Part shown: positions 33,914 through 50,655 of the stretch, one piece after another
Position numbering within the stretch: the stretch's first letter is position 1
Layout of the letters: each line of letters opens with the position of its first letter
Assembly (NCBI RefSeq): GCF_011044995.1
Contig: NZ_JAAKZW010000001.1
Location: forward strand, 1 to 64,000
Direction: 5' to 3'
DNA: 64,000 nucleotides
Source: Streptomyces mesophilus
Lineage (GTDB): Bacteria > Actinomycetota > Actinomycetes > Streptomycetales > Streptomycetaceae
The notes under the pieces: generated by a model
Databases searched by the model: none
Told to the model about the DNA's origin: nothing
Seen by the model: only the letters and a program-made list of their open reading frames with translations
Program-made: the position numbers and the translations under genes

Positions 33914-34972
33914 GTGACGCGGAATGCCGTGATTTCCGGAATGGGTGGCTGCCTACCGTCGCGAGTCGTCGACAACGACCAACTCGCAACGGAATTGGGT
34001 GTCTCCGATGAGTGGATCCGCTCCCGTACAGGCATTTCCACCAGGCGTCGCGTCGAACCCGGAATGGGCACCGCCGATCTCGCGGTGTCCGCCGGGCTTG
34101 CCGCGCTCGAGTCCGCCGACGCACGTGAGGTGGGGATGGTCATCGTGGCCACGACGACCCCGGACCGCACATGTCCTTCCACTGCACCCGAAGTGGCTTG
34201 GCGCCTCGGGCTCGGCAACACACCGGCCGTCGATCTCAACGCGGCATGCTCGGGTTTCGTCTATGCCTTGACGATGGCTTCCGCCCAGATCAGGTCCGGC
34301 GAACAGGACAGCATTCTGGTCATTGGCGCCGATGCTTTCTCCACGATCGTCGACCCGCTCGACCGGAACACGGCGATCGTCTTCGGCGACGGCGCCGGGG
34401 CGGTGGTGGTCCGCCACGGCGACATGGACGAGCCCGGGGCCGTACTCGCCACGCACTTGGGGAGCGACGGCAGCGGGAGCGACTTCGCAGCCGTGGCGGC
34501 GGGCGGGTCACGCATGCCCCGGCCCGATGACACCATTCCCCGGCAGCTGCGCTACGTCGACCTCAACGGGCGCCAGATCTATCTGCAGGCGATCCGCCGC
34601 ATGACCGCGTCCACCCTGGCCGTCCTGGAGCGTGTCGACTGGACCACGGACAAGCTGGAAGCACTCGTCGCCCACCAAGCGAACCAGCGCATCCTCGACG
34701 CGGTGGGAAAGAAGCTCGGACTGCCCGGACATCTACTCATCGGCAACATCCGCGAAGTCGGCAACACGGCGGCCGGTTCCGTGCCGCTCGCCATGACCGA
34801 CGCGGCCTCCCGGGGCGCCGTCGACGCCGGCGCCCGCACGGTGCTGACCGCCTTCGGCGCGGGACTCACCTGGGGAGCGATCGCGCTCAGCTGGCCGGAC
34901 CTTCGCCCCGTGGTGCACGCACCCCAGCTCCGGCACCCGTCCGAACAGAGCTGCCCCGCCGGGCATTCCTGA
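33914..34972 (+). CDS. beta-ketoacyl-ACP synthase III (FabH-like) 1
   Basis: A 352-aa KASIII. The GTG at 33914 has GAGAGG 6 nt upstream. Catalytic triad: Cys112 (NAACSGF), His254 (AHQANQRI) and Asn284 (VGNTAAGS), as in FabH. The N-terminal SRTGISTRRRV and the end GAGLTWGAIALSW are typical. A C-terminal tail of about 24 residues (beginning PDLRPVVHAP) goes past the usual end. In the cluster it should condense an acyl-CoA with malonyl-ACP, starting a rightward operon of supply genes. The substrate is unknown. Confidence 0.88.
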   Translation: MTRNAVISGMGGCLPSRVVDNDQLATELGVSDEWIRSRTGISTRRRVEPGMGTADLAVSAGLAALESADAREVGMVIVATTTPDRTCPSTAPEVAWRLGLGNTPAVDLNAACSGFVYALTMASAQIRSGEQDSILVIGADAFSTIVDPLDRNTAIVFGDGAGAVVVRHGDMDEPGAVLATHLGSDGSGSDFAAVAAGGSRMPRPDDTIPRQLRYVDLNGRQIYLQAIRRMTASTLAVLERVDWTTDKLEALVAHQANQRILDAVGKKLGLPGHLLIGNIREVGNTAAGSVPLAMTDAASRGAVDAGARTVLTAFGAGLTWGAIALSWPDLRPVVHAPQLRHPSEQSCPAGHS

Positions 34973-35036
34973 CCCCGGCCCGCCCATATCCGCCTCGAAA
35001 AGGTAGTTCCAGCACCGAAGAGAGACGAGGAATGCC

Positions 35037-35276
35037 GTGAGTACCGTGATCTCCCAACTCACCGCCATGCTGACGGAAAGGCTCGGCATCGAGCCGTCGA
35101 AAGTGCAGTCCGACGCCACCTTCGAACAACTCGACCTGGACTCGCTCGCCGTAGTGGAACTCACGGAGATGCTGCAGGACGAATTCCAGGTGACTCTCTC
35201 CGACGACGACATCACCCACACCAATTCCCTGTCGGACGTCATCGCGCTCCTGCACAGCAGGGGTGTGCTCGCCTGA
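35037..35276 (+). CDS. free acyl carrier protein
   Basis: A 79-aa ACP with phosphopantetheine Ser36 in LDLDSLAVVELTEMLQD. The DSL motif and acidic helix II are as expected. It is in the same operon as KASIII-1 (65 bp upstream) and the SDR (13 bp downstream). The PPTase encoded in the cluster (39344-39916) probably activates it. GTG start with GAGG nearby. Confidence 0.9.
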   Translation: MSTVISQLTAMLTERLGIEPSKVQSDATFEQLDLDSLAVVELTEMLQDEFQVTLSDDDITHTNSLSDVIALLHSRGVLA

Positions 35277-35288
35277 AGGAGAACCGTC

Positions 35289-36044: not shown

Positions 36045-36061
36045 GAAGGTGAGGCTGACTC

Positions 36062-37396
36062 ATGGAAAGTCTGTCGACAGCCGTCCTCGCAGCCGCACCG
36101 GCGGACGAGTTGCTCCGCGCGGCCATCCCCGCCCAGTACACGGCGGCACACCTGCGCATCGAGGACACCAAGATCTTCGACGCCGTCGCGGACGGCGACG
36201 ACAGGGACGTGAGCCGCTCGCTCCACGTCGGCGAGGTTCCTATGCCTCAACTGGCCCCGGACGAGGCCCTCGTGGCCGTGATGGCCAGTTCGATCAACTA
36301 CAACACGGTGTGGTCGGCGACCTTCGAACCCCTGCCCACCTTCGACTTCCTGCGCCGTTACGCCCGGGAAGGGGCCTTCGCGCAACGCCACGACCAGCCC
36401 TTCCACGTCGTGGGCTCGGACGCGGCCGGTGTGGTGGTACGCACCGGCGCCGGCGTCACCCGCTGGCGCTGCGGCGACCACGTCATCATCTCGCCCGTCC
36501 AGGTGGACGATCACGAACCCATGACCCACGCGGACAGCATGCTCGGCGCGCGCCAGCGGGCCTGGGGATACGAGACGAACTACGGCGGCCTCGCCCAGTA
36601 CGCCGTCGTCAAGGCCAGCCAGCTGCTGACCAAGCCAGGGCATCTGACCTGGGAGGAGTCGGCGGTCACCATGCTCACTGCGGCGACCGCGTACCGCATG
36701 CTCATCGGCAGCAAAGGGGCACGGATCAAACTCGGTGACATCGTGCTGATCTGGGGTGCCACCGGCGGCCTTGGCGCATACGCCGTGCAGTTGGTGAAGA
36801 ACGCGGGCGGCATCCCTGTGGGGGTGGTGGGTTCCCGGGACAAGGAGAAGGCCGCGCGTGCCCTCGGCTGCGACGTGGTCATCAACCGCCATGACATCGG
36901 GCTCACCGGCGCCCGCACCACCCAGGAGGCCGTCGAGCAGGGCAAGCGTCTGGGCAGCGCGGTCCGCGAACAGGTCGGCGAGGACCCGCACGTCGCGTTC
37001 GACTACGTCGGCAAGGAGACGTTCGGGCTGTCCGTCTTCGCCGTACGCCGCGGTGGGACCGTGGTGACCTGCGGGTCGAGCACCGGCTACGAGCACCTCT
37101 ACGACAACCGCTATCTGTGGATGAACTCCAAGCGGATCATCGGCAGCCACGGCGCCAACCTCCAGGAACACGCCGAGTGCAGCCGCCTGTTCAGCCTCGG
37201 AAAGATCATGCCGGCCCTCTCCGCAGTCTTCCCGCTGGCCGACGTCGCCAAGGCTGCCCGGCTGGTGCAGACGAACCGGCACACCGGCAAGGTCGGCGTG
37301 CTGTGCCTCGCCCCGCAGGAAGGACTCGGCGTCACCGACCCGGAGCTGCGCGCGCGGATCGGGGAGGCACGCCTCAATCCCCTGCGAACCGTCTAG
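36062..37396 (+). CDS. ccr: crotonyl-CoA carboxylase/reductase
   Basis: A 444-aa medium-chain dehydrogenase/reductase. The WGYETNYGG motif with the CO2-binding aromatic-Glu pair, SSINYNTVW with Asn, VVGSDAAGVVVRTGAGV and LIWGATGGLGAYAVQL (NADPH site) are those of the CCR family that reductively carboxylates 2-enoyl-CoAs to alkylmalonyl-CoAs. The start ATG 36062 is 18 bp after the SDR. A CCR next to KASIII and 3-hydroxyacyl-CoA dehydrogenase genes is the usual arrangement for making unusual polyketide extender units. The acyl chain length cannot be told from sequence. Confidence 0.9.
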   Translation: MESLSTAVLAAAPADELLRAAIPAQYTAAHLRIEDTKIFDAVADGDDRDVSRSLHVGEVPMPQLAPDEALVAVMASSINYNTVWSATFEPLPTFDFLRRYAREGAFAQRHDQPFHVVGSDAAGVVVRTGAGVTRWRCGDHVIISPVQVDDHEPMTHADSMLGARQRAWGYETNYGGLAQYAVVKASQLLTKPGHLTWEESAVTMLTAATAYRMLIGSKGARIKLGDIVLIWGATGGLGAYAVQLVKNAGGIPVGVVGSRDKEKAARALGCDVVINRHDIGLTGARTTQEAVEQGKRLGSAVREQVGEDPHVAFDYVGKETFGLSVFAVRRGGTVVTCGSSTGYEHLYDNRYLWMNSKRIIGSHGANLQEHAECSRLFSLGKIMPALSAVFPLADVAKAARLVQTNRHTGKVGVLCLAPQEGLGVTDPELRARIGEARLNPLRTV

Positions 37397-37459
37397 GGAT
37401 CCGGCGCCACACGGGAGATGCCCCTCGTACCCGCATTCACCGTCCAGGAAGGCACGTTC

Positions 37460-38458
37460 ATGCCCACGCGACCGATCGGCATCCTCGGCACCGGTTCCTA
37501 CGTCCCTCGGTCGAATATCACCAACGCTGAACTGGCGGCGCGCGTAGGCGTCGACGAGGAGTGGATCCACCGGCAGACCCGCATCACGGGGCGCCGCTAC
37601 GCCGCGGACGACGAGGCGACCTCCGATCTCGCGACGCACGCTGCCCGCACGGCACTTGACCGGGCCGGCATCGACGCCGGCCGACTCGACCACCTCATCG
37701 TGGCAACGTCCACACCCGACTCACCCCAGCCGCCCACAGCTCACCGCGTCCAGCACGCGTTGGGAGCGCAGGGCGCGGCCTGCTTCGACATCAACGCAGC
37801 CTGCAGCGGCTTCGTCTACGGTCTCGCGCTGGCCCGGAGTCTCGTCGCACAGCGCCGGGACAGCCGCATCCTGGTCGTCGCGGCGGATGTCTGCTCGCGC
37901 TTCCTCGACTTCAGCGACCGGCGGACCGCCGTCCTGATGGGGGACGGAGCTGGCGCGGTCGTGGTGGGTCCCGTAGAGGAGGGGCACGGTTTCCTGGACT
38001 TCGAGCTGGCCGGCCGCGGCCACGCCGCCAGGCTGATCAGGGTGGACGCCGGCGGCAGCAGGCTGCCGGCCTCGGCCCGGACGGTCGAGGCCGGGGCGCA
38101 CTTTCTGCGCATGGACGGCCGTGGTGTCGTCGAGTTCCTGCTGCGGGAATTCCCCCCCTTCATCGACGCGTTGCTACGCCGCGCCGGTGTCACGGCCGAT
38201 CAGGTAGACCACTTCGTTCCGCATCAGCCCAACGGAGTGCTTCTGAGCAGGCTCGTGGAACGCGCCGGGCTGACCAAGGCACGCACCCACCGCACCGTGG
38301 AGGAGTACGGCAACACCGGTGCTGCCTCCGTACCGCTGACGCTCGACATCGCCCACCGCACCCGGGAGTTGCGCCACGGCGATCTGGTACTGCTCGCCGG
38401 CTTCGGCAGCGGCATGTCGCTTGGCGCATCGCTGATGCGCTGGACGGAGGTCTCATGA
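37460..38458 (+). CDS. beta-ketoacyl-ACP synthase III (FabH-like) 2
   Basis: A 332-aa KASIII with Cys115 (NAACSGF), His255 (PHQPNG) and Asn285 (YGNTGAAS). ATG 37460 is preferred because AGGAAGG lies about 7 nt upstream; the frame stays open further. It is distinct from KASIII-1 outside the active-site blocks. Its stop overlaps the start of the dehydrogenase gene (ATGA). Together with the CCR it is expected to build a 3-ketoacyl thioester from a starter acyl-CoA. Confidence 0.88.
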   Translation: MPTRPIGILGTGSYVPRSNITNAELAARVGVDEEWIHRQTRITGRRYAADDEATSDLATHAARTALDRAGIDAGRLDHLIVATSTPDSPQPPTAHRVQHALGAQGAACFDINAACSGFVYGLALARSLVAQRRDSRILVVAADVCSRFLDFSDRRTAVLMGDGAGAVVVGPVEEGHGFLDFELAGRGHAARLIRVDAGGSRLPASARTVEAGAHFLRMDGRGVVEFLLREFPPFIDALLRRAGVTADQVDHFVPHQPNGVLLSRLVERAGLTKARTHRTVEEYGNTGAASVPLTLDIAHRTRELRHGDLVLLAGFGSGMSLGASLMRWTEVS

Positions 38459-39369
38459 ACACGCATGTCCCCGACGACGCATCCATCAGCCGCGTAGGTG
38501 TGGTGGGCTGCGGAATCATGGGTGCGGGAATCGCCGAGGTCTGCGCGCGGTCCGGACTGCACGTGCGGATCGTCGTCTCCCGGCCCAGTGCACTGGGGCG
38601 CGCCGCCGGACAGCTGCACGCCTCGCTGGACCGGGCCGTGGCGAAGGGGCGGATCTCGGAGGCCGAACGGGAGCGCGCCGTCGGTGCTGCAGAGTTCACG
38701 GCCGACCTGGCGGACCTCGCGGACCGGCAGTTCATCGTGGAGGCCGTGCCCGAGGACGCGTCCGTCAAAGCGGGGGTCTTCCGTACCCTGGACAGCCTGC
38801 TCGGCGATTCCCCGGCCATTCTTGCCTCCACCACGTCCTCGCTGCCCATCGGCCGGATCGCCGAAGCCACGTCCCGCCCCGGGCGGGTGCTCGGCACGCA
38901 CTTCTTCAGTCCGGTCCCGGTGGCACCGCTCGTCGAGTTGGTGGGAACACGGTTCACGGAGCCTGCGCTCCTGGACCGGACCGAGTCCCTGCTGACGGTA
39001 ACGCTGGGCAAGGAGGTCATCCGGGCCGGGGACCGCAGCTGCTTCGTGGTGAACGCTCTGCTGGTGCCGTATGTCATCTCTGCCATCCGCATGGTCGAGT
39101 CCGGATTCGCCCGCGTCGAGGACGTGGACCGCGGCATGGTCCTTGGGTGCGGCCATCCCATGGGGCCCTTACGGCTCGCGGATCTGGTCGGACTCGACAC
39201 CGTCGCCGCCACCGCGCGTTCGCTGTGCGAGGACTCGGGGGAATCCCTGCACGCACCTCCGGCACTGCTCGAGCGCATGGTCGAAGAGGGACGGCTGGGG
39301 CGCAAAACCGGCACGGGCTTCTACGAGGACTACCGGTCGGGCGTCACCGATCGCGCATCTGGACACTGA
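38455..39369 (+). CDS. 3-hydroxyacyl-CoA dehydrogenase
   Basis: A 304-aa protein of the HAD/3-hydroxybutyryl-CoA dehydrogenase family. NAD-binding VGVVGCGIMGAGIAEV (about 13-28), catalytic His in GTHFFSPVPVAPLVELV, and the C-terminal helical domain (CFVVNALLVPYVISAIRMVE) are as expected. ATG overlaps the KASIII-2 stop, so they are coupled. It should reduce the KASIII product to a 3-hydroxyacyl-CoA, which after dehydration feeds the CCR. The 3' end overlaps the convergent PPTase gene by 26 bp. Confidence 0.9.
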   Translation: MNTHVPDDASISRVGVVGCGIMGAGIAEVCARSGLHVRIVVSRPSALGRAAGQLHASLDRAVAKGRISEAERERAVGAAEFTADLADLADRQFIVEAVPEDASVKAGVFRTLDSLLGDSPAILASTTSSLPIGRIAEATSRPGRVLGTHFFSPVPVAPLVELVGTRFTEPALLDRTESLLTVTLGKEVIRAGDRSCFVVNALLVPYVISAIRMVESGFARVEDVDRGMVLGCGHPMGPLRLADLVGLDTVAATARSLCEDSGESLHAPPALLERMVEEGRLGRKTGTGFYEDYRSGVTDRASGH

Positions 39370-39916
39370 AGTTCGCCGGCCCGGCGCAGGCGACCGCCAG
39401 CACGTACGGGCCATAGCGCAGGTCCCGTACTCGGTGCACGGCGCCGCTGCGACCGACGGCGAAATGAAGCCGTCCGTTCCCGCCGACCGGTACCGGCCAG
39501 TCCCGCGGGTCGGCCCACAGCCCGGCTCCCACCGCCTTGAGCACCGCCTCTTTACGTACCCACCAGGGCACGAGCGCTTCGGCGCCGCACCGCGCGGCCT
39601 CCCGGCGCTCGTCCAAGGTCATGAACCGTCCGAACGCGTCCGGGTCCGGCTGCTGAGCGGCCGGTTCGGCGTCCACACCCAGCTCCCGCGGACCGCCGAC
39701 AGCTACGGCCAGCAGTCCGGGGCAGTGCGTGAGCGAGAAGCGCAGGCCGGGGCCGGCCGGCGCTTGGACGTACGGTTTTCCCCTACTGGTGCGCGCCAGG
39801 ACGAGTTCGTCCCGGCTGCACCCCAACTGCGCGGCCAGCAGGGCCCGTACGAGATCCTGGTGTCGGCGGCGCGGCACGTACGGACGCAGATGCAGTACGA
39901 CTCGGTCCTCAGTCAC
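39344..39916 (-). CDS. 4'-phosphopantetheinyl transferase (Sfp type)
   Basis: A 190-aa PPTase. The GVDAE and WVRKEAVLKAVG motifs (Mg2+ and CoA binding) are intact, and FSLTHC precedes them. It is the last gene of the leftward operon and its GTG overlaps the stop of the hotdog gene by 8 nt. The cluster thus carries its own activator for the free ACP and the AT-ACP protein. Confidence 0.9.
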   Translation of the reverse strand: MTEDRVVLHLRPYVPRRRHQDLVRALLAAQLGCSRDELVLARTSRGKPYVQAPAGPGLRFSLTHCPGLLAVAVGGPRELGVDAEPAAQQPDPDAFGRFMTLDERREAARCGAEALVPWWVRKEAVLKAVGAGLWADPRDWPVPVGGNGRLHFAVGRSGAVHRVRDLRYGPYVLAVACAGPANFSVQMRDR

Positions 39917-40337
39917 CGACGGTCGCACCCTGCACCGTCGCCTCGGGCCGGTGTACGGGGTCCGGCGGCAAGGAGCAGCCGACCGTGCCGCGGCCCAGCA
40001 AGTCGCCGTGCTGGTTGCGGAGGGTGAAGTCCGCGTTGAGCAGGACACCCAGCTGTCCGCCTGACTGGACGTCGGTGATCTCGATCCTGGTCTCCACCAC
40101 GTCACCGGCGTACGCGGGGGCCATGAGCTCGACAGTGATCCGGTGGCCCAGGGCGCTGCGGCCGCCGAGCATGGACAGCGCGGCCAGCAGATAGGCGCCG
40201 TGCGCGACGGGGCGTTCCACCGCAGGTGACACATGGTGGGCCGCGAGATCCGCGGTGAGTTCGCCGAAGGCGCGGATCATCGAGGCGCTGATGCGGCGGC
40301 GCACCACATGGACATCGCCCACGCGCGGCCCGGTCAC
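39909..40337 (-). CDS. MaoC-like hotdog protein
   Basis: A 142-aa single-hotdog protein. MIRAFGELTADLAAHHVS and PVAHGAYLLAALS resemble the MaoC/R-hydratase active-site region (D..H..). GTG overlaps the stop of KS-CLF-DH protein 2 (GTGA). It may perform dehydration of a 3-hydroxyacyl thioester, or hydratase, in the pathway. It could supply the dehydration step missing from the supply operon, or assist the DH domains. Confidence 0.75.
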   Translation of the reverse strand: MTGPRVGDVHVVRRRISASMIRAFGELTADLAAHHVSPAVERPVAHGAYLLAALSMLGGRSALGHRITVELMAPAYAGDVVETRIEITDVQSGGQLGVLLNADFTLRNQHGDLLGRGTVGCSLPPDPVHRPEATVQGATVGD

Positions 40338-43300
40338 CGCGCGCCCCCGGACGCGCGCGTGTAGAGCCGCAGCCCGCGCACTTCCGCCAGGACTGTGCCG
40401 TCGGGCGCAATGGCCCGTTGCAGGCGATCCGTCGCTCCGCCGGTTGCGGCCGGCCGATGGTGCAGTGTCACTCCCGAGCCGAACAGGCCGGCCAGGGCGA
40501 GGTCGTTCGCCTGCGTGTACAGGGTGAGTTCGCTCAGGCCGACCGGCATGGGCGGTTCGTGGGCGAGATGGTGCTCACCGTTCAGCTGCCCGGTGCGGAA
40601 CATGGCGTCCAGGAGCACGGCGGGAGTCCGGAACTTTGAGAAGGCCGGGTGGTCCGGTGCGATGGTGCACCGCCAGAGCGCCGTCCCTCCGCGGTGGTGT
40701 GCACGCAGTCGACGCAGCGAGTCGAAAGTACCGCTGAGCAGATGCGGTCGGTTGGGGCGGCAGTAGACGTCGGGGAGTTCCGGTGCGTCGGACGAGGGCT
40801 CCGGGAGGTCGTCGGCGTAGGGACGTTGGCCGATGAACGAGGACAGCCGAACCTGGGCGGACATATGGATCCGGTCGGCCTGGATGACCTTGCCGTCGGG
40901 CAGCGTCACATCGCTCAGGAGGCGCACAAAGACCGTGGCCCCCGCGTCGTCGCAGTGCAGGACTTCGGCGTCTGCCTTGAGCGTCAGGGGCGGTCGCCCC
41001 GTGTCAGGGAGGCGTACGAACGCCTCGAACTCCACCTGGGCGAAGGACTGCGGCAGGAAGCGCGGCACCAGTGCGGTCGCGGCCTCGGCTGCCAGCTCCA
41101 GCATCAACGTGCCGGGCATCGTGGGCCGTCCGTCCACCCGGTGCTCCGAGAGGAAGCCGTCCCGGTCCCTGTCCAATGGCACCCGCCAGCGAGCGCGCTC
41201 GGCACTCCGCTCGACGGTTTCCCGAAGGTAGAACGCCTCCACAGCTCTGGGCGGTTGCTTCGGTACGGATGTCGGGTGCGCTGCAGCCAGTCGAAGCGCC
41301 GGCAGGTGCCGGTCCTGCTCGGGTGCGATGACAGCATCCCCGGCGTCGGAGGCAGTGGCGCGCAGGATTCTGACGGCGCTGTCGGCTCCCAGGAATCCGG
41401 TGTGTGCTGCGGGCCGCGGCTCGGTCGGCGGCTGCCTCTTGCCCTGTGTCCTCTCAAGGCGACGCAGAACCGGGAGCTTCAGTCGTTGTGCGGTGGAGCG
41501 GCGGGTCAGGGCCAACGCGAACGCTCCTTCGCGCAGTCGCCGCCCCCGCGCGAGACCGAGCAGCGCGTCGCCGTGCTCCGCGTTGCCCGCCACCGCGAAG
41601 ACCAGCGCGAACTCCACTCCCCCGGTGACGAGTTGCAGACGGGCCGCTTCGAGTGCGGCGAGCGCGGAGTCGGGTCCCGCCTCGAAACTGAGGGCGGGTC
41701 CGTGCAGGTCGTACTGCACGGCCACGCGCGAGGCCATGATGCAGCACAGCAGCCCGGTGTAGGTGTCGGAGATGCCGCGCGGCACCTGTCCACGCACTTC
41801 CTCGGCGAGCCGACGGGCGGTGAGCTGCCGGGTGCCCGGCAGCGGATCGTCACCCGTCCTGCGCCGGAAGTCGTCCATCGAGGCGCGCAGTGCATAGGCG
41901 ACGCTGCCCGCGGTCGGCCCCATGTGACCAAGGAAGACGCCTGTCTCCGCGGCCAGTTGTCGCCAGGCTCCGCCGAGCTCGCGGTCGAGTCCGTGGGCGC
42001 TGTCGAGGATCATCAGGTGCGAGCGGTCAAGGGTGTCGAAGGTGGCCGGAGGGAGCCGGCACGCCGCGAAGGGCGGTGGCGGATACGGGGTGGGGAAGGC
42101 ATCGGCCCATGTCTGTGCACCGGTGGACAGCCATCGCTCGACGGCTGCGCGGTGCGGAGCGCCGGGCAGGTGCGCGTACCAGGCGGTGACCACCACGTCG
42201 TCGGCGGATGGCACGGATGCGGTCGCTTCGCCGGCGTGTGCCGAACGGGCCTCAGGCGTCGTTTCAACAGCGAGCGGCCCATCGCTGATGACCGCACACC
42301 CGTTGACACCACCGAGACCGTAGGCGCACACGGCCGCGATACGCGGTGCGCTCTGCGTACGGCGCCGCCACGCCACGTCCTCGGTGGGGATGGCCAGCGC
42401 GCCACCGCGGAGCAGCGCCGGGTCGGTCACCTCGTCGAACTGCCGCTGTGCGGGGATGAGTTCATGTTCCATAGCGAGCAGGCCGTGGATGACGGAGGCG
42501 ACGCCGGCCGTCCAGCCGGTGTGTCCGATGAGCGCCTTGTTGGAACTCACCTGCCAGCGCGCGCCGTCCACCAGTTCGCCGAGCATGCGCAGTTCGGCGG
42601 CGTCACCGGCCCGGGTGCCGGTGCCGTGGGCGATGATCCACTGCACGTTTGCGGGCACGATCCCGGCCTGCCGCAGGGCGCGCCGGACGGCAAGCTGCTG
42701 TCCCTTGGGGTTCGGTGTGACGATCGACGTGCCGGGCCCGTCCGTCGATGCGCCCGTGCCGAGCAGCACGCCGTGGATGCGGTCACCGTCTGCCACGGCC
42801 CGGTCGTAGCGTTTGAGCGTCAGCAGTCCGGCTCCCTCGCTGAACACGGTGCCGTCGGCGCCCTTGTCGAAGGGGCGGACACCGCCGGTACGGGGCGCGG
42901 CCCGCATCACGGAGCACAGCACATTGGTCAGTCGGTTCAGCACGAAGGTGCTGCCGCAAACGGCGATGTCGCACTCGCCCGACCTCAGGGCCCTGAGTCC
43001 GGCGTCCAGGGCCTGCAGGGAACCCGAACAGGCCCCTTGGAGCACCGAGATCTGGATGTCGTCGGGCAGGACCCCGGACGCTGCTGCTTCCACCTGACGC
43101 GGAGCGAGGTAGGAGGCGGGGGTTGCTCTTGCCTGCGGATAGTGGTCCTGCAGGCTGCGGCGCACCTCGTCGACCCTGCGCCCGTCCTCGCAGAGCAGCG
43201 TGGCCACCCTGTCGACGACCAAGGACTCCTCCAGGCGCTGGGAGGATTCCGCCGCCGCCCCCACGGCAAGCAGCCAGCGGTCCGCTTCCTCGCGCCCGAT

Positions 43301-43612
43301 CCCTTCGGTCGCCTGCAGCAGACAGTGGCGCAGCCACCGTCCGGCCTCGGAGTCGAGGTCCGCCGGCGCACCGCGATCGATGTCCGCGTGCGGGCGAAAC
43401 CCGGTGACGTACCCCATCTCCCGCCGGTAGACCCGGTCTTCGGCTGTCAGCTCGGGAGCGAAGAGTGTCTCCAGGTCCCACCGCTCATCCGGCGGGCCGA
43501 ACTGTGGCTCGTCCTGGCACAACACCCGCCAGAACTCCTGGGGCGAACTGGCGCCCGGCACCACGAGCCCCATCCCGACGACGGCGACGGCTTCGCCGCG
43601 GTGCGCGCTCAC
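40334..43612 (-). CDS. KS-CLF-DH polyketide/PUFA-like synthase protein 2
   Basis: A 1092-aa multidomain protein. KS at about residues 1-420: Cys195 (QGACSGS), His329 (AHGTGT) and His364 (IGHTGW), a complete triad. A shorter KS-like domain follows (about 445-720; DTYTGLLCCIMASRVAVQYD) with Pro647 at the Cys position and no HGTGT, so it is a chain-length-factor-like pseudo-KS. A DH hotdog region occupies about 800-1092, with His824 in SEHRVDGRPTMPG. This KS-CLF-DH order is that of PfaC from polyunsaturated fatty acid synthases. GTG 43612 overlaps the AT-ACP stop (GTGA). It has no ACP, AT or KR. Confidence 0.82.
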   Translation of the reverse strand: MSAHRGEAVAVVGMGLVVPGASSPQEFWRVLCQDEPQFGPPDERWDLETLFAPELTAEDRVYRREMGYVTGFRPHADIDRGAPADLDSEAGRWLRHCLLQATEGIGREEADRWLLAVGAAAESSQRLEESLVVDRVATLLCEDGRRVDEVRRSLQDHYPQARATPASYLAPRQVEAAASGVLPDDIQISVLQGACSGSLQALDAGLRALRSGECDIAVCGSTFVLNRLTNVLCSVMRAAPRTGGVRPFDKGADGTVFSEGAGLLTLKRYDRAVADGDRIHGVLLGTGASTDGPGTSIVTPNPKGQQLAVRRALRQAGIVPANVQWIIAHGTGTRAGDAAELRMLGELVDGARWQVSSNKALIGHTGWTAGVASVIHGLLAMEHELIPAQRQFDEVTDPALLRGGALAIPTEDVAWRRRTQSAPRIAAVCAYGLGGVNGCAVISDGPLAVETTPEARSAHAGEATASVPSADDVVVTAWYAHLPGAPHRAAVERWLSTGAQTWADAFPTPYPPPPFAACRLPPATFDTLDRSHLMILDSAHGLDRELGGAWRQLAAETGVFLGHMGPTAGSVAYALRASMDDFRRRTGDDPLPGTRQLTARRLAEEVRGQVPRGISDTYTGLLCCIMASRVAVQYDLHGPALSFEAGPDSALAALEAARLQLVTGGVEFALVFAVAGNAEHGDALLGLARGRRLREGAFALALTRRSTAQRLKLPVLRRLERTQGKRQPPTEPRPAAHTGFLGADSAVRILRATASDAGDAVIAPEQDRHLPALRLAAAHPTSVPKQPPRAVEAFYLRETVERSAERARWRVPLDRDRDGFLSEHRVDGRPTMPGTLMLELAAEAATALVPRFLPQSFAQVEFEAFVRLPDTGRPPLTLKADAEVLHCDDAGATVFVRLLSDVTLPDGKVIQADRIHMSAQVRLSSFIGQRPYADDLPEPSSDAPELPDVYCRPNRPHLLSGTFDSLRRLRAHHRGGTALWRCTIAPDHPAFSKFRTPAVLLDAMFRTGQLNGEHHLAHEPPMPVGLSELTLYTQANDLALAGLFGSGVTLHHRPAATGGATDRLQRAIAPDGTVLAEVRGLRLYTRASGGAR

Positions 43613-44880
43613 TTTCCGGCCCCGGGAGCGGGGGCCGCGTGGGCCCGTACGAACTCCAGGATCTCGCCCATCGTCGGGTAGGCGGAGACGGCGAAACTGT
43701 CCGGCAGGTCGGCGAGTTCGAACCGGTTGAGCACCTTGCCCAGGATTTCGGTCTGCCGCATGGAGGTGATGCCGAGGTCGGCCTCCAGATCGGTTTCGGG
43801 CTCGAACGCCTCCGGCGGGTAGCCGAGCGCCTCGACGTACACCGCACGCAGCTCGTCGAAGGTGCAGGTCTCGCCGGGCGGAGCCGGTGCGGCGACGGGA
43901 ATCTCGGGGGCAGGCAACGCGGTCTCCCGACGCTGCTGGGGAGGTACGCTGCGGCGCTCCGCGGGCTCCGTGCGGGCCGGAGCACCAGGTGTCAGGACGG
44001 TGGCGATGAGCGGGGTGAGCAGAGGGCGCGCGGCGCACTCGATGAACTCCTCCACTCCCGTGCTGTGCAGGAGCTGCAGGGCGGTACGCAGCCGCACCGG
44101 GCGGGAGATGTGGTCCGCGACGGCGCGCGCCAGGTCTTCGCCGTCCCGGTAGAAGCCGCCGCTGATCGGCGAGTACACGGGTTCGCGCAGCGGGCGCTGC
44201 GGCAGGCCTTTGATGTCATGCCAGAGGCGGTCGCTCACGTGCTGATAGGACGGATGGTGCGACGCGAACGGCGTGGCGATCCGGCTGGCCCGCAAGCCCA
44301 ACTGCTGGGCCAGGTCATGAAGTTCACCGACCGCGGTGGCCGGGCCACAGACGACGGTCTGTGTCGCGGTGTTCTCCACCGCCACCGCGAGCGACGGGTT
44401 TCCGAGTGCCGCCAGGAGGTGCTCCGCGCGTTCCGCGTCCGCCTCCAGGACCACCGCTCCCGTGTCCTCACCCAGCAGATCGCACAGGAGCCGGGTGCGG
44501 TGCGCGACGATGCGGGCACCGGACACGACGTCATACGCGCCGCCCGCCACCAGCGCCATCACCTCGCCGAGGCTGAGCCCCAGGAGAATCCTTCGATGGC
44601 CTTCTGGCCGTTCGGGCAGAGCGCGGTAGGCGGCCAGCGCACCCGCGTAGATGGCCAGATGGAAGGCGATCGGATCCTCGCGCATCAGGGTCGGCAGATC
44701 ACGCTCCCCGCGTTCGAGCAGCGGTCCGGTCACCGGTCCGCCGTCGAACTCCTGAGAGACCTCGTCGATGACGGACAGGAACCCGCGCACCGTGCCGTCC
44801 TTTTCGGCGAGGGAAGCAAGTGCCCCGGGCTGATAGGAGGCAGCCCCGGGAAAGGCGATCAACGTCGGTGAGTCACTCAT
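43609..44880 (-). CDS. acyltransferase-ACP didomain protein
   Basis: A 423-aa protein. The AT domain (about 1-300) has Ser103 in GLSLGEV and His208-His209 in FASHHPSYQ; the usual GHSxG His is Leu here. After an Ala/Pro-rich linker (about 300-340), a single ACP occupies about 345-415 with Ser373 in DLGITSMRQT. It lies between the ketoreductase SDR and KS-CLF-DH protein 2 and probably loads malonyl (or alkylmalonyl) units for both KS-CLF-DH proteins. Start ATG 44880. Confidence 0.85.
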   Translation of the reverse strand: MSDSPTLIAFPGAASYQPGALASLAEKDGTVRGFLSVIDEVSQEFDGGPVTGPLLERGERDLPTLMREDPIAFHLAIYAGALAAYRALPERPEGHRRILLGLSLGEVMALVAGGAYDVVSGARIVAHRTRLLCDLLGEDTGAVVLEADAERAEHLLAALGNPSLAVAVENTATQTVVCGPATAVGELHDLAQQLGLRASRIATPFASHHPSYQHVSDRLWHDIKGLPQRPLREPVYSPISGGFYRDGEDLARAVADHISRPVRLRTALQLLHSTGVEEFIECAARPLLTPLIATVLTPGAPARTEPAERRSVPPQQRRETALPAPEIPVAAPAPPGETCTFDELRAVYVEALGYPPEAFEPETDLEADLGITSMRQTEILGKVLNRFELADLPDSFAVSAYPTMGEILEFVRAHAAPAPGAGK

Positions 44881-44966: not shown

Positions 44967-45716
44967 TCAGCCACGCCCCAGCACCGCCCCACCGTTGACC
45001 TGCAGGATCTGGCCGGTGACGTACGAGGCGTCGGGGGACGCGAGCCAGCGCACCGCCGAGGCGACCTCTTCGGGGCGGCCGGGCCTGCGCAGCAGCACCT
45101 GTTCGATGGCCTTGCCGCGTGCCGCGGCGCCCGCGCCGACCGCCGCGGCGTTCTCGGTGCCTTCGATGAAGCCGGGGGCGATGGTGTTGACGGTGACCCC
45201 CTTGCCGCCCAGTTCCGCGGCGAGGGAGTACATCCAGGTGTGCAGGGCCGCTTTGGCCGAGGCGTACGGAGCGTTTCCCGGAAGGAACGCACCGTACGAG
45301 CTGATCGTGATGACCCGCCCGCCGGGTCGTCGCAGGCGTGTCCGCAGCGCACTGGTCATCAGTACGGACGGCATCACATTGGCGCGCCACTGCCGCTCCC
45401 AGTGTTCCGCGAGAGCGGCAAGTCCCCAGGCGGGACGGTCCTCCGTGACACCGGCATTGTTGACCAGGATGTCCACCGTGCCGCCGCAGTCGTGCAAGGC
45501 GTCCTCGACCGCCCTCTCGACCGATGGGGGCAGCGTGAGGTCGCTTTGGTACCAGCGCGCGGCGCCGCCCTCGGCGGCCACCTGGTCCGCGGCACGTTTC
45601 AGTGGCTCGCGACGACGTCCGAACAGCGCGACGTCGATGCCGTCCCGCGCCAGAGCCAGCGCGCAGGCGAGACCGATGCCGGTGCCCGCGCCGGAGATGA
45701 AGGCGGTTCTGTTCAT
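44967..45716 (-). CDS. discrete ketoreductase (SDR) of the PKS operon
   Basis: A 249-aa classical SDR: GAGTGIG (about 9-15), NNAGV, SSYGAF with catalytic Ser, and YASAK (Tyr, Lys). ATG overlaps the stop of KS-CLF-DH protein 1 (ATGA). FGRRREP after strand 2 carries Arg residues that suggest NADPH use. It should provide the beta-keto reduction that is built into PfaA in PUFA synthases but is not present in the KS-CLF-DH proteins here. Confidence 0.88.
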   Translation of the reverse strand: MNRTAFISGAGTGIGLACALALARDGIDVALFGRRREPLKRAADQVAAEGGAARWYQSDLTLPPSVERAVEDALHDCGGTVDILVNNAGVTEDRPAWGLAALAEHWERQWRANVMPSVLMTSALRTRLRRPGGRVITISSYGAFLPGNAPYASAKAALHTWMYSLAAELGGKGVTVNTIAPGFIEGTENAAAVGAGAAARGKAIEQVLLRRPGRPEEVASAVRWLASPDASYVTGQILQVNGGAVLGRG

Positions 45717-48700
45717 CGCCACGATCCCGTTGCCAGACCTCGGGTACGAGGCACCTGCACCAGGCTGAGCCCCCTTGCCTCCACGAGGACATGTCCCGTG
45801 GCGGCAACCGCTCGCAGGTGACGCACAGCCGTCCCGCCGTGGTCCCCGGTCAGGTCCCACAGCTTGACCGTCGCAGGGTCGGGCGGGTCAGATGCTCCGC
45901 CATCTCCCGCGGTGTACAGGCGCAGGCTCCGCAGCGCGACGGGAACGCAGTCGGCATGTGCGGTTGCGGATTGGGGCCAGGTGCGGAGCAGGGCCTCGAT
46001 GAGGCCGACGGGGATGCGCAGCCTCCACTGAGCCGTCGGCGGAACCGGAAGACAGTACGTCGTGGCCGGCACCTGCGCGGTGTCGCTGCCGTCGGGCCGC
46101 TCCTGGGGTGGTGGTTGGCCGTTCGGTCCGCCCATGCGCACGCTCATCCGGGCATGGAGGGGTTGGCGCCGGAGCATTCTGCCGCCGGGCAGTGTCAAGT
46201 CCCGGGTGATGGCCACGTCCACGACGGCCGCGCCCTCACTCGTCTCGCGGACGTGGGACGAGAGGATCACTTCGGGTGGCGCGAGCCCCGAACGCTGGGG
46301 CGGGAGCCTGACGAACGACTCAAAGGTGACGTCAGTGAACTCCCTCACCACCAGATCGGGCACGAGGTCCGCCGCAGCCTCTGCGGCCATCTCCAGGAGC
46401 GCCGCTGCCGGCACCGTGGGCCTGCCGTCCACCGAGTGCCCGTACAGACACTCGTCGTCAGGCGTGCCGAGCGGAACGGACCATACGGATTCCCGTTCTC
46501 CACGCGAGATCCGACGCCGTAGAAAGAACGCATCCGTGTCCGCTGCGGCCCGTGGTGAGGCCGACCGTGCGCAGGCCGGTGGAAGGGTCAGCACGATGCC
46601 GGGTGTCAGCCGGTCCTCGCCCGGGCCCAGGACGGCCCGCGGAAGCCGTTCGTGCAGTGCCCGCAGCAGACGGACAGCGCTCTCGGCGCCCAGGAAGCCC
46701 GCGTGGCCCGGAAGGACCGGCACCGGAGTGCCCCTTTGGGCCTCGGCCGTGCCGATCTCCGCCAAAAGGGGCAATCCCAACGCGCCGGCCCGGCTCGCCC
46801 GGGTCAGCACCAGGGTGAACACGCCCTCGCGCAGGGGACCTTCCGGTTCGCCGTCCAGGAGCAGCGCGCCGGACGCCGTGTTCGCCGACACGGCAAGCAC
46901 CAGGGCGAAGTCGATGTCGCCCGCTTCGAGGCATCGGCGGGCCGCATGCAGTGCCGCCAGGGCTGCGTCACGACCGGCGTCCAGGGCCAGCGCCGGCCCG
47001 TGCAGGTCGAATTGGACGGCGACGCGTGAGGCGATGACATTGCAGATGAAGCCGGTGTACGTGTCCGAGTCTGCGCGGCGGACCCTTTCCCGTACGGCCG
47101 CGGCGAACTCCGCGGCGGTCATCGACAGGCCCTCGACCCCGGCGTCCTCGATGCGGCGGCCCAGATCGTCGGCGCCCACGCGCAGTGTGTACTCGATGCT
47201 GCCCTTGGTCGGCCCCAGGTGACCGACGAACACCCCTGTCCGTTCACCGTCGTTGGCCCACGGCGGATCCCTGTGACCGGCCAGCTCGTGCATCGCGTGC
47301 ATCGTCATGAGGTGGGAGCGGTCGAGTGACGGATGTGTGGCCGGCGGCAGCGTCGTCACCTCGGCGCGGAGCGCCGGGTACGGATCGGCGAAGGCATCCG
47401 GCCAGGTGGAGGCACCGGTGCCCAGCCAGGCCTCCACCTCTGCCCGCGGCGGCTTGCCCGGCAGGTGTGCGTGCCAGTCCGTCACGACGATCGCATCGTG
47501 CGGGAGGTGTCGGCGGGCCGGCCCGCGCGCCGCGGGCGTCGGCTGGTCCGGCGGATCACCTACGAGTACACAGCAGTTGCTTCCGCCAAGTCCGTACGAA
47601 CACACTCCTGCCACGCGCGAATGCCCCGTGTCCGACCGAACCCAGGCCACGGGCTCCGTCGGTACCACGAGGGCTCCCCCGAGCAGCGCGGGACGCGCCG
47701 GCTCGACGAAGCGGCGCTGCGCGGGAATCACACCGTGCCGCAAGGCGAGCAGCGCATGGATCACCGAGACGATGCCGGCGGCCCAACCGGTGTGTCCAAT
47801 CAGGGACTTGTTGGAGGTCACCTGCCAGCGGGCACGGTCGCCGGCGGCGGTGGACAGCATCTCCAGCTCCCGCGCGTCGCCCACCTTCGTCCCGGTGCCG
47901 TGGCCCACGATCCACTGCAGGTCCTCGGGCTCGAGGCCGGCTCGGTCCAAGGTGCGTCTGAATGCCCGCAGTTGACCCTTGGGATTCGGCGCCATGATCC
48001 CCTTGCCCCGGCCGTCGGTCGAACCCCCGACGGCGTGCACGATGCCGTGGATGGGATCTCCGTCGGCGAGCGCCCTGTCGTAGCGCTTGAGGATGACGAC
48101 GGCGGCGCCGTCGCTGAAGAGCGTCCCCGCCGCATCCCGGTCGAACGACCGCAGGTCGCCGGACGGCGCGTAGCCGCCCATCTCGGAGAACAGCACGTTG
48201 GTGCGCCGACCGAGTACGAACGACGCACCGCACACGGCCACGTCGTACTCCCCGGCCACCAGCGACTTCCACCCGCTGTCCAACGCGTAGGAGGCGGTCG
48301 AGCAGGCAGCGTCGACCACCGACACCTCGCACAGTTCGGGCAGCAGACCTGCTACCGCTGCCCGGACCTGGCGATAGGGCAAGTAAGTTGTCGGCGGCGC
48401 ATCCGCGTGCGGATAGAGCGCTCGCAGCGCACCACGAACCCGGTCCGCAGGGCCTGCCCCGTTGAGCATGTCGGCGGCGAGCGTGGCCGTCAGACTCTCC
48501 TCGAGCCGCTGGCTGCCCTCGGCCGACGCACCCACCGACACCAGACAACGGTCGGCCGCAGCGAGATGCACCCCTTCCAGCGCCTGCAGTACGGAGTGGC
48601 GCAGCCAACGGCCCAACTCGTCGAGCCCTTCGGCCCCTTCCGTGTCCGTACGCGGATGCGCCGGAAAGTCACGGTGGATGTAGCCCATCTTGCGGTGCCG

Positions 48701-48883
48701 CACGCGGTCTTGCGCGTCCGGACGGTCCGAGTGCAGCGTGCCCAGGTCCCAACGGTCGTCCGGTTCGCTGAACTGCGGTTCGTGTTGTTGCAGGACCTGC
48801 CAGAAGTCGTCCGGGGACGCACACCCCGGCACGACCATGCCCATACCGACCACTGCGATGGCCGGCTCCGGTGCGCTGGTCAT
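45713..48883 (-). CDS. KS-CLF-DH polyketide/PUFA-like synthase protein 1
   Basis: A 1056-aa paralogue of protein 2 with the same order. KS at about residues 1-420 with Cys194 (DAACSTAS), His328 (GHGTGT) and His364 (IGHTGW). The CLF-like domain (about 445-700) has Arg638 in place of the Cys. The DH hotdog region (about 790-1056) has His816 in GHSVDGRPTVP. The two proteins align along their length but are clearly diverged. ATG overlaps the SnoaL-like stop (ATGA). Active Cys in both KS domains suggests two condensing modules rather than an active/inactive pair. Confidence 0.82.
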   Translation of the reverse strand: MTSAPEPAIAVVGMGMVVPGCASPDDFWQVLQQHEPQFSEPDDRWDLGTLHSDRPDAQDRVRHRKMGYIHRDFPAHPRTDTEGAEGLDELGRWLRHSVLQALEGVHLAAADRCLVSVGASAEGSQRLEESLTATLAADMLNGAGPADRVRGALRALYPHADAPPTTYLPYRQVRAAVAGLLPELCEVSVVDAACSTASYALDSGWKSLVAGEYDVAVCGASFVLGRRTNVLFSEMGGYAPSGDLRSFDRDAAGTLFSDGAAVVILKRYDRALADGDPIHGIVHAVGGSTDGRGKGIMAPNPKGQLRAFRRTLDRAGLEPEDLQWIVGHGTGTKVGDARELEMLSTAAGDRARWQVTSNKSLIGHTGWAAGIVSVIHALLALRHGVIPAQRRFVEPARPALLGGALVVPTEPVAWVRSDTGHSRVAGVCSYGLGGSNCCVLVGDPPDQPTPAARGPARRHLPHDAIVVTDWHAHLPGKPPRAEVEAWLGTGASTWPDAFADPYPALRAEVTTLPPATHPSLDRSHLMTMHAMHELAGHRDPPWANDGERTGVFVGHLGPTKGSIEYTLRVGADDLGRRIEDAGVEGLSMTAAEFAAAVRERVRRADSDTYTGFICNVIASRVAVQFDLHGPALALDAGRDAALAALHAARRCLEAGDIDFALVLAVSANTASGALLLDGEPEGPLREGVFTLVLTRASRAGALGLPLLAEIGTAEAQRGTPVPVLPGHAGFLGAESAVRLLRALHERLPRAVLGPGEDRLTPGIVLTLPPACARSASPRAAADTDAFFLRRRISRGERESVWSVPLGTPDDECLYGHSVDGRPTVPAAALLEMAAEAAADLVPDLVVREFTDVTFESFVRLPPQRSGLAPPEVILSSHVRETSEGAAVVDVAITRDLTLPGGRMLRRQPLHARMSVRMGGPNGQPPPQERPDGSDTAQVPATTYCLPVPPTAQWRLRIPVGLIEALLRTWPQSATAHADCVPVALRSLRLYTAGDGGASDPPDPATVKLWDLTGDHGGTAVRHLRAVAATGHVLVEARGLSLVQVPRTRGLATGSWR

Positions 48884-49305
48884 CGGGCAGCCAGATCCGC
48901 GGTGTTCCAGTAGTCACGGTGTACCCGGATCCGGCCGTCAGGACCGAGTTCGTCGATGCACGCGCCACGCAGCCGGATCGGCGTAGCGGCAGGCGCCGGG
49001 CCCGATCCCCCTCCGTCGGCTGCCGCCTCGGCACGCGTCACCGTCAGTTCCCATTCCGTGACCCCCACCGTCCCGAGCGACGTCACCGACAGCAACTCGG
49101 CTCGCGTGCTGGGGAATTCGGCAACCCAGTCCAGGAAGAGAGTGCGCAGTTCCTCGCGACCCTGGCCGGTCCGTTTCATCGCCACGTCCTCGAATTGAAC
49201 GTCCTCCGTGAAGTGCAACACCATCCCGTCGATGTCCTGAGCGTTGATGGAATCCACCCAAGCCTTCATCAGTTCCCCGTACGTGGGCACGTCCGGCTCT
49301 CCCAT
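48880..49305 (-). CDS. SnoaL-like (NTF2-fold) protein
   Basis: A 141-aa protein of the SnoaL/NTF2 superfamily (ELMKAWVDSINAQDIDGMVL, ELLSVTSLGTVGVTEWELTV). The ATG at 49305 is chosen for its excellent SD (AGGAGG, 7 nt). In polyketide clusters such proteins are cyclases, hydroxylases or isomerases. The usual catalytic acid/His pair cannot be assigned by eye. It overlaps KS-CLF-DH protein 1. Confidence 0.78.
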   Translation of the reverse strand: MGEPDVPTYGELMKAWVDSINAQDIDGMVLHFTEDVQFEDVAMKRTGQGREELRTLFLDWVAEFPSTRAELLSVTSLGTVGVTEWELTVTRAEAAADGGGSGPAPAATPIRLRGACIDELGPDGRIRVHRDYWNTADLAAR

Positions 49306-49365
49306 TTCCCAACCTCCTGGCACGAGTTGCGGCATTCACGGCTTGGACGGATCGGCTGCACCGAC

Positions 49366-50655
49366 CTACGCTGTTCGCCAACGAATCGGCAGATGCTTGA
49401 GACCGTTGACGAAGTTCGACGTCATCCGGACAGGGGGGCTCGCGATTTCCAGGTCCGGCAGCCTCTCGATGGTCTGACGGATCATGGCCTTCAGTTCGAT
49501 GCGCGCGATGTGGGCGCCGCTGCAGTAGTGCGGCCCGTACCCGAAGCTGATGTGGTCGTTGGGCGTTCGCGCGATGTCGAACCGGTCGGGTTCCACGAAT
49601 GCGGCCTCATCGCGATTCGCCGAAACCATGTAGACACCGACCTTGTCCCCGCTGCGGATTCGTTGACCGGCGAGTTCCGTATCACGTGTGCAGGTACGTC
49701 TGAACATGATGCCCGGGGACCAGAAGCGCAGCATCTCCTCGACCGCGGAGTCGAGCAATTCGGGTTGTGCACGCAGGCGTTGGAATTCCTGCGGATGCGT
49801 GAGCAGCGCGTGCAGCCCGCCGGGCGCACTGGCGCGGATGGTCGCGTTGCCGGCCAGGATGAGCCCGAAGAACATGAGCTCGAACTCCTCGCGGTTGAGA
49901 CCGCCTTCCTGCATCCGCGCCATCAAGCTGCCCGGCCGTGGGGCATCGGCGAGGGCATGGGCGTACGCGAAGATGTCGGCGAGCGCGGCACGCGAGCGTG
50001 GATTGACCGGTGCCCCGCCGGAACGCGGTGCCGGGACGGTGCGCAGCGCGAGGGACATGCGGCCGATGTCGGTGAGCGATTCGGGGTCCACGCGCGCCCC
50101 GCCCGCATAGTCCGCGTCCTGATATCCGATCACACGGTTGGTCCAGTCGTAGATCAGCGGACAGTCCTGCTGCGGCATGCCGAGGATGTGGCACAGCGCC
50201 CAGATGGGCAGGTCGGCGACGAGCTCGGCGAAGTCGACGGCTCCGGAGTCCGCGACCGAGTCGACCAGATGCGCGGCGCGCTCCTCGATCGCATCCGCCA
50301 GTTCTCGTACGGCACGCGGCGAGAAGGCCGCCGCGATGCTGCGCCGCAGCCGACTGTGCTCCGGCGGATCCTGATTCACGATCATGGACCGCAGGAACTC
50401 CAGGTCCTCCGGGGTGTCGGGGTCACGCAGTTGCGCACCGCCCGCGTACGAAGAGAAGGTCTCGTAGTCCTGCAGCACCTTCTTGACGTCCGCATGCCGA
50501 ACAACGGCCCAGTAACCGGGTCCGGCCGGCCAAGCTCCCACCGGACGCTCAGGAATCCACGTCACCGGATGGTGTGCGCGCAATTCGCGGAAGAGATCGT
50601 ACGGAACCCCTCGGGCGAATGTTTCCGGCAGGAAAATATCGGTTGCGGTCGCCAT
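49366..50655 (-). CDS. cytochrome P450
   Basis: A 429-aa bacterial P450. Heme motif FGYGPHYCSGAHIARIE with Cys378; ExxR in EEMLRFWSP; the I-helix has LILAGNATIRAS, which keeps the conserved Thr but has Ala for the preceding acid and Ile for the second Thr. It is the first gene of the leftward operon (60 bp upstream of the SnoaL-like gene). Probably oxidises the acyl product late in the pathway. A ferredoxin is not encoded nearby. Confidence 0.9.
   Translation of the reverse strand: MATATDIFLPETFARGVPYDLFRELRAHHPVTWIPERPVGAWPAGPGYWAVVRHADVKKVLQDYETFSSYAGGAQLRDPDTPEDLEFLRSMIVNQDPPEHSRLRRSIAAAFSPRAVRELADAIEERAAHLVDSVADSGAVDFAELVADLPIWALCHILGMPQQDCPLIYDWTNRVIGYQDADYAGGARVDPESLTDIGRMSLALRTVPAPRSGGAPVNPRSRAALADIFAYAHALADAPRPGSLMARMQEGGLNREEFELMFFGLILAGNATIRASAPGGLHALLTHPQEFQRLRAQPELLDSAVEEMLRFWSPGIMFRRTCTRDTELAGQRIRSGDKVGVYMVSANRDEAAFVEPDRFDIARTPNDHISFGYGPHYCSGAHIARIELKAMIRQTIERLPDLEIASPPVRMTSNFVNGLKHLPIRWRTA

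What the first reader, a model, noticed from the sequence alone, without database searches (positions are those of the whole stretch)
33914..50655. Dissociated PUFA-synthase-like cluster with two KS-CLF-DH proteins and its own extender-unit operon
Seen: two paralogous proteins with order KS, Cys-less short KS, DH (Cys195/194, His329/328, His364/364; Pro647/Arg638 in the second KS-like domain; DH His824/816), with a separate KR-like SDR, an AT-ACP didomain, a MaoC-like protein and a PPTase in one overlapping operon. Known: KS-CLF-DH is the order in PfaC; PfaA carries the AT, ACPs and KR, and PfaD the enoyl reductase. Inferred: a split synthase lacking ER, so a polyene-like acyl product, with the rightward KASIII/CCR operon supplying an alkylmalonyl or starter unit and the P450 as tailoring enzyme. 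No thioesterase is visible.
Basis: partly seen in the sequence, partly recalled or inferred. Interest (0 to 1): 0.88.

Follow-up and report, generated by a model that had tools for sequence, protein, structure and literature searches.

The report
Split lipid-like synthase, twin condensing proteins
A soil bacterium carries a small, split-up chain-building enzyme set whose two twin condensing proteins look like those that make omega-3 fatty acids but belong to a separate, apparently undescribed family, next to genes that probably make an unusual branched building block.

Summary
Two paralogous proteins (KCD1 45713-48883, KCD2 40334-43612; 49% identical) each carry an intact ketosynthase (KS), a Cys-less truncated KS-like domain (CLF) and a dehydratase (DH), in one tight operon with KR, AT-ACP, hotdog protein, PPTase, SnoaL-like protein and P450.

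The PUFA-synthase filing fails. The KSs fall in a clade of their own (100/99, 27 rows); holding KCD1/2 with PfaC KSs is rejected (p-AU 0.00011). The cluster has no PfaA or PfaD homologue, while the same genome holds a real PfaA elsewhere. KCD1-like proteins occur in 23 of 199 genomes of the genus.

The extender-unit idea is supported: the CCR is nearest the octenoyl-CoA enzyme 4a0s (634.8 against at most 474.7 bits), and the AT reads FASH where 13 of 17 aligned ATs have F before the His. Most likely product: an alkyl-branched unsaturated acyl chain, not a PUFA or polyene. Product, release step and division of labour between the twins are unproven.

The parts
45713..48883 (-). KCD1: KS (1-450), truncated CLF-like KS (about 460-715), DH (about 785-1056)
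40334..43612 (-). KCD2: second KS-CLF-DH, sister of KCD1 in the KS tree
43609..44880 (-). AT-ACP didomain; AT motifs GLSLGE and FASH
   Evidence: PF00698, PF00550; of 199 genus genomes 15 have a match at E 1e-40, all 15 beside the KS-CLF gene
44967..45722 (-). SDR-type ketoreductase (YASAK active site, read from the sequence)
39909..40337 (-). hotdog protein, weakly R-hydratase (PhaJ/MaoC) like
   Evidence: 1iq6, E 5.1e-5; no Pfam match
39344..39916 (-). phosphopantetheinyl transferase
   Evidence: PF01648, 42 bits
48880..49335 (-). SnoaL-like (NTF2 fold) protein
   Evidence: PF12680, PF07366; weakly near polyether epoxide hydrolases
49366..50655 (-). cytochrome P450, nearest CYP125/CYP124 type
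33914..34972 (+). KASIII-A
   Evidence: PF00550, 49.4 bits
35289..36044 (+). FabG-like SDR
36062..37396 (+). CCR of medium-chain (octenoyl) type, GSHGAN motif
   Evidence: (TIGR01751)
37418..38458 (+). KASIII-B
38455..39369 (+). 3-hydroxyacyl-CoA dehydrogenase

Best explanation
A dissociated iterative polyketide synthase of a KS clade that is separate from PUFA synthases, modular PKSs and type II PKSs, and whose core is AT-ACP plus KS-CLF. Shown: gene content, intact KS triads, truncated Cys-less CLF, clade placement, CCR kinship. Inferred: the PPTase activates the AT-ACP and the discrete ACP. KASIII-A, the discrete ACP and the SDR make a 3-hydroxyacyl starter. KASIII-B, the dehydrogenase and the CCR turn a medium-chain acyl-CoA into an alkylmalonyl-CoA, about C6 side chain by analogy with 4a0s. 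The AT loads that unit on the ACP. The two KS-CLF proteins condense in turn or on different chain lengths, the shared KR reduces, and the KCD2 DH (perhaps also KCD1 DH or the hotdog protein) removes water, giving an alkyl-branched 2-enoyl chain. The P450 oxidises it, and the SnoaL-like protein may open or cyclise an epoxide. Release without a thioesterase is unexplained.
For: Clade placement. KS triad 27 of 27, CLF Cys missing 27 of 27. CLF is KS-like (control). AT-ACP: 15 of 199 genus genomes match at E 1e-40, and all 15 are among the 23 with a KCD1 match, within about 2.1 kb of it by the coordinates listed. CCR nearest 4a0s by 160 bits, sharing GSHGAN where the four crotonyl-type chains shown have GSHFAN. 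The genome's other CCR lies on C221 among genes that look like the ethylmalonyl-CoA pathway and has GSHFAN. AT motif FASH against F before His in 13 of 17, window included; YASH is the methylmalonyl and HAFH the malonyl signature (PMC6164871, passages). P450 near CYP125/CYP124 entries, titled steroid C26-monooxygenase and methyl-branched lipid omega-hydroxylase.
Against: No assay or product. One residue in an AT motif is weak evidence for specificity, and the same AT has Leu for the His of GHSxG (15 of 17 have His). Of 22 relative loci and five, only L045 has a clear CCR beside the KS-CLF (L026 has a 27% match 6.6 kb off), none shows a KASIII match, and only L055 and L078 show the dehydrogenase, so the link between the two operons is not conserved. 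The KCD1 DH has Glu for Asp. Eight of the 23 genomes with a KCD1 match gave no AT-ACP match at E 1e-40, though looser tblastn found the AT in six of them (G037, G047, G089, G100, G102, G105). The operons converge rather than share a promoter.
Confidence: 0.42

Rival explanations
1. Extender-unit factory, as in FK506: AT-ACP, KS-CLF-DH and KR build a short 2-enoyl-ACP, the CCR carboxylates it, and the alkylmalonyl unit leaves for a modular PKS elsewhere, for example the NRPS-PKS on contig C333.
For: TcsA (AT-ACP) and TcsB (KS), with the fatty acid synthase pathway, make trans-2-pentenyl-ACP for TcsC (CCR) (PMC9728173, passages; PMC11959593, passages). L045 has AT-ACP, KS-CLF and CCR side by side (KS-CLF and CCR overlap by 4 bases, AT-ACP 8 bases away) and its KS is in the same clade. 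One of four C333 ATs has VPAH, neither YASH nor HAFH.
Against: KASIII-B plus dehydrogenase already give a CCR substrate route. The cluster has its own P450 and SnoaL-like protein. Apart from KCD1 and KCD2, contig C111 shows only two fragmentary 21-bit PF00109 matches in frames of about 400 aa, so no modular PKS is linked. The AT differs from that of L045 (GPFH).
Confidence: 0.25
2. The KS-CLF synthase uses malonyl-CoA only and the alkylmalonyl operon is a separate neighbour with another purpose.
For: Operons converge and overlap by 26 bases only at their ends. None of 22 relative loci shows a KASIII match and one a clear CCR.
Against: AT motif FASH; no modular PKS seen on the contig to use the extender.
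Confidence: 0.18
3. A split PUFA or polyene synthase.
For: KS-CLF-DH order as in PfaC; KR, AT, ACP and PPTase present.
Against: KS clade; no PfaA (TIGR02813 at most 155.7 bits on the ten window proteins scanned against a cut-off of 1010); no ER match in 14 cluster proteins; one ACP domain in place of a tandem array.
Confidence: 0.07

Closest known systems
PfaC of PUFA synthases (6riw, named ORF10; that it is Moritella PfaC is recalled)
   Same: Order KS, CLF, DH; KS matched at E 4e-47 (KCD1) and 4.4e-44 (KCD2)
   Different: KS clade separate, AU p 0.00011; single DH; truncated CLF; no PfaA, PfaB or PfaD partner in the cluster
FK506 allylmalonyl genes tcsA/allA, tcsB/allK, tcsC/allR
   Same: AT-ACP didomain, separate KS protein, CCR (passages)
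AT-ACP plus KS-CLF proteins of Streptomyces, other actinomycetes and Paraburkholderia (L026-L027, L036-L055, L077-L078, L120-L122), no name found
   Same: Same KS clade for the 25 relatives in the tree, truncated CLF, DH His in all 24 DHs aligned
   Different: 14 of 22 have an SDR ahead of the KS and those checked have a KR before the DH; here the KR is free, the KS protein is duplicated and KASIII/CCR genes adjoin
Octenoyl-CoA carboxylase/reductase 4a0s (the name CinF is recalled)
   Same: Closest solved relative of the CCR, same GSHGAN motif
   Different: Its cinnabaramide context is a modular assembly line (recalled)
Type II PKS KS/CLF pairs
   Same: KS with Cys-less partner
   Different: Separate proteins, different clade; CLF profile match only 8.7% probability

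Membership tests
PUFA (Pfa) synthase | KS-CLF-DH protein (PfaC order) | tested here: met
PUFA (Pfa) synthase | KS of PfaC clade | tested here: not met
   p-AU 0.00011
PUFA (Pfa) synthase | PfaA with KS-MAT-tandem ACPs-KR | tested here: not met
   TIGR02813 54.3-155.7 bits on AT-ACP, KCD2 and KCD1 against cut-off 1010; control PfaA on C200 scores 1209.7
PUFA (Pfa) synthase | PfaD enoyl reductase | tested here: not met
   no nitronate-monooxygenase-type ER among 14 cluster proteins (Pfam, E 0.001)
Type II PKS | separate KS-alpha and KS-beta in the type II clades | tested here: not met
AT-ACP / KS-CLF clade (unnamed) | KS in the clade, intact Cys-His-His, truncated Cys-less CLF | tested here: met
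AT-ACP / KS-CLF clade (unnamed) | adjacent AT-ACP protein | tested here: met
   AT match beside the KS-CLF in 21 of 22 loci (L040 starts inside the gene), five of five
FK506 TcsABCD-type pathway | AT-ACP, KS protein and CCR together | tested here: met
FK506 TcsABCD-type pathway | sequence kinship of KCD1/2 to TcsB | not testable with these tools
   no named TcsB sequence found here; paper PMC3030623 not held
FK506 TcsABCD-type pathway | TcsD acyl-CoA dehydrogenase | tested here: not met
   no such match among 14 cluster proteins
Medium-chain CCR | closest to octenoyl-CoA enzyme with Gly in the GSHxAN motif | tested here: met
   activity not tested

The most novel reading that the evidence does not exclude
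An iterative synthase that uses a medium-chain alkylmalonyl-CoA, made by its own operon, as its regular extender, with two duplicated KS-CLF-DH proteins assigned to different rounds (one possibly without working dehydratase), so that twin condensing proteins on one AT-ACP program a multiply alkyl-branched lipid without modules.
Probability: 0.2. Interest if true: 0.75.

Novelty: new variant of a known kind. Interest (0 to 1): 0.52.

Why it matters
About one in nine sampled genomes of the genus (23 of 199 at E 1e-60) carries a KCD1-like KS-CLF protein, and searches of the held papers for its domain strings showed no description of this clade in the listings (open-licence papers only, most listed papers not opened). 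The window member is the most dissected one seen here, so each part can be expressed alone. It would let the role of a truncated CLF, and the programming of chain length by duplicated KS-CLF proteins, be tested directly, and it may yield a new branched lipid.

Tried and rejected
PfaC kinship was tested by tree and rejected. Elasnin was considered, since it is built from alkylated units (recalled); no paper with its gene cluster was found (listings, passages). AlphaFold on the two-sequence alignment gave pLDDT 30.6 and no fold search was run; the relatives come from the genome search and the plasmid collection, which are not in the tool's list of allowed sources, so none was added and the second job was not used. 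The single genome-contig scan chose N-terminal motifs and returned only a 29% locus of a Kuenenia MAG, so organism names of close relatives are lacking; the genus is inferred as Streptomyces because the G019:C2 match coincides in coordinates with NZ_CP108509.1 of Streptomyces sp. NBC_01237. L045 stands in for TcsA-TcsB-TcsC by gene order only. A phage search gave only weak matches below 60% identity, none covering 80% of KCD2.

Rows left out. KS tree: of the 23 genus genomes with a match, 17 are in the tree by their own locus and G019 probably as L078; G024, G037 (L048, no KS in the frame chosen), G055, G058 and G165 are not; L077 and the second KS protein of L026 were also left out. Labels of the reference KSs (type II, highly reducing type II, modular) are mine, from gene layout. 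AT table: window plus 14 relatives, PfaA_C200 and one C333 AT; L042, L049 and L050 were entered but gave no blastp hit (probably wrong frame), and L037, L040, L046, L052 and L054 were not entered. Of the 27 CLF rows hhalign used 25.
Full report
What is there. The window is the first 64 kb of contig C111 of an 8.99 Mb genome. A leftward operon runs from the P450 (49366-50655) through a SnoaL-like protein, KCD1, an SDR-type KR, AT-ACP, KCD2 and a hotdog protein to the PPTase (39344). With the starts chosen here, five neighbouring pairs overlap by 4-10 bases; the gaps are 86 bases between KR and AT-ACP and 30 between P450 and SnoaL-like gene (coordinates). A rightward operon, 33914-39369, carries KASIII-A, a discrete ACP, an SDR, a CCR, KASIII-B and a hydroxyacyl-CoA dehydrogenase. 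The two converge and overlap by 26 bases. Identities come from Pfam and NCBIfam.

The twin proteins. KCD1 and KCD2 are 49% identical along their length. Both KSs keep Cys, two His and Lys, as do all 27 family KSs compared; the Cys position of the second domain is never Cys in 27. A profile of the second domains matches Pfa-type KSs at probability 99.7 over 241 columns (E 1.1e-26), FabF and type II KSs at 96.8 (233 columns), the family's own KSs at 96.8 but over only 85 columns, and type II CLFs at only 8.7; the Pfa match ends at KS position 287 of 452. A control against ATs gave 0.19. In KCD1 only about 70 residues then remain before the DH, so the CLF there is a KS relative that has lost roughly its C-terminal third. 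The DH has its catalytic His in 24 of 24 and Asp in 21 of 24 (KCD1 Glu, L120 Glu, L044 Cys); four residues on, 21 of 24 have Arg, L036 Gln, L055 and L120 His, where active DHs are described with Dxxx(Q/H) (PMC6273641, passage).

Not a PUFA synthase. In a tree of 58 KS and CLF domains, 27 family rows form one clade (100/99) apart from PfaA KSs, PfaC KSs, modular KSs, FabF and type II KS and CLF; KCD1 and KCD2 are sisters (100/100). A smaller tree of 27 rows agrees, and forcing KCD1/2 together with three PfaC KSs costs 140.6 log units, p-AU 0.00011. The same genome holds a PfaA homologue on C200 that scores 1209.7 against a cut-off of 1010, so the model finds the real thing when present. PfaA, PfaD and a tandem ACP array are missing from this cluster. 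Shulse and Allen (PMC3098273; section 7 in full and passages; figures not held) list secondary lipid synthase types A to T; in the parts that I read none has two KS-CLF-DH proteins with a lone AT-ACP.

The family. Full-length KCD1 matches 23 of 199 genomes of the genus at E 1e-60, own genome included, and 13 of 150 relatives, partly the same genomes. Its CLF-DH half matches 7 of 394 genomes of the class at E 1e-15. A Paraburkholderia plasmid carries one too. In 20 fetched regions and two plasmid loci an AT match lies beside the KS-CLF in 21 of 22, an SDR match ahead of the KS in 14 of 22 and a DH match downstream in 21 of 22; a KR before the DH was confirmed by Pfam in the four loci looked at (L041, L042, L026, L053). 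An independent search with AT-ACP found it in 15 of 199 genomes at E 1e-40, all among the 23 and within about 2.1 kb of the KS-CLF match; the other eight fell below that cut-off. KS-CLF-DH without a KR between was seen in KCD1, KCD2 and L036. Two KS-CLF proteins in one locus were seen here and in L026. Neighbours of relatives include P450, SnoaL-like and FAD proteins (L041), NRPS-like genes (L053; recognised from the protein start by eye) and, in L036, a NAD_binding_4 reductase.

The extender operon. The CCR matches the octenoyl-CoA carboxylase/reductase 4a0s with 634.8 bits and crotonyl enzymes with at most 474.7. At the pocket motif it has GSHGAN like 4a0s; the crotonyl-type chains shown and the genome's other CCR have GSHFAN; L045 has GSHMAN. 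That the F-to-G change widens the pocket is recalled, not tested. The other CCR lies on C221 beside two dehydrogenase matches and genes that look, from their protein starts by eye, like the mutase and lyase of the ethylmalonyl-CoA pathway. The window CCR is therefore probably an extra copy for specialised metabolism. KASIII-B and the dehydrogenase directly follow it. Among relatives only L045 has a clear CCR, and none of 22 shows a KASIII match, so this pairing of operons is not conserved.

The AT. The window AT reads FASH where 13 of 17 aligned ATs (12 of 14 family relatives) have F before the His, and GLSLGE where 15 of 17 have His; Ser, an Arg (taken from memory as the carboxylate-binding one) and the final His are kept in 17 of 17. 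YASH marks methylmalonyl and HAFH malonyl ATs (PMC6164871, passages). This suggests, but does not show, a branched extender.

Tailoring. The P450 is nearest CYP125/CYP124 entries (371.6 bits for the top one). Its I-helix reads AGNAT, lacking the usual acid before Thr (read from the sequence; consensus recalled). The SnoaL-like protein is weakly nearest MonBI/MonBII and LasB (best E 4.8e-5), epoxide hydrolases of polyether pathways (the first two recalled).

Function. Two readings fit: the alkylmalonyl unit feeds this synthase (best explanation), or the synthase helps make an extender for another PKS as TcsA and TcsB do in FK506 (passages). The presence of a full KASIII-B/dehydrogenase/CCR set, of tailoring genes and of the FASH motif favours the first; the L045 layout and the VPAH AT on C333 keep the second alive. 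A PUFA or polyene product has no support beyond domain content and order. Novelty claims rest on listings of open-licence papers only.

Noticed in passing
own genome, contigs C200, C53 and C312 (L057-L059): PUFA-synthase-type proteins (PfaA 1209.7 bits on C200; FabK-type ER fused to KS on C53; KS protein on C312), frames running to contig ends.
   Followed up: partly
own genome, C333:119072-137567 (L060, L126): PKS genes within an NRPS-PKS neighbourhood; one of four ATs has VPAH, neither the malonyl nor the methylmalonyl signature, while two have YASH and one HAFH.
   Followed up: partly
window 38455-39369: The dehydrogenase gene has one TTA codon (codon 239); none of the other 14 genes checked has one, so bldA-type control is possible.
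   Followed up: no
window 51069-52472: 467-aa protein without Pfam match, starting like a helix-turn-helix regulator (by eye), divergent from the P450 operon.
   Followed up: no
window 59678-62755: 1025-aa protein whose start resembles a large AfsR-type regulator (by eye).
   Followed up: no
L026 6716-16301 (Streptomyces sp. BHT-5-2 plasmid p1): Second locus with two KS-CLF proteins, in opposite directions around one AT-ACP.
   Followed up: partly
L036 6807-13451: SDR-KS-CLF-DH with a separate KR and a NAD_binding_4 reductase next to it, suggesting reductive chain release in a relative.
   Followed up: no
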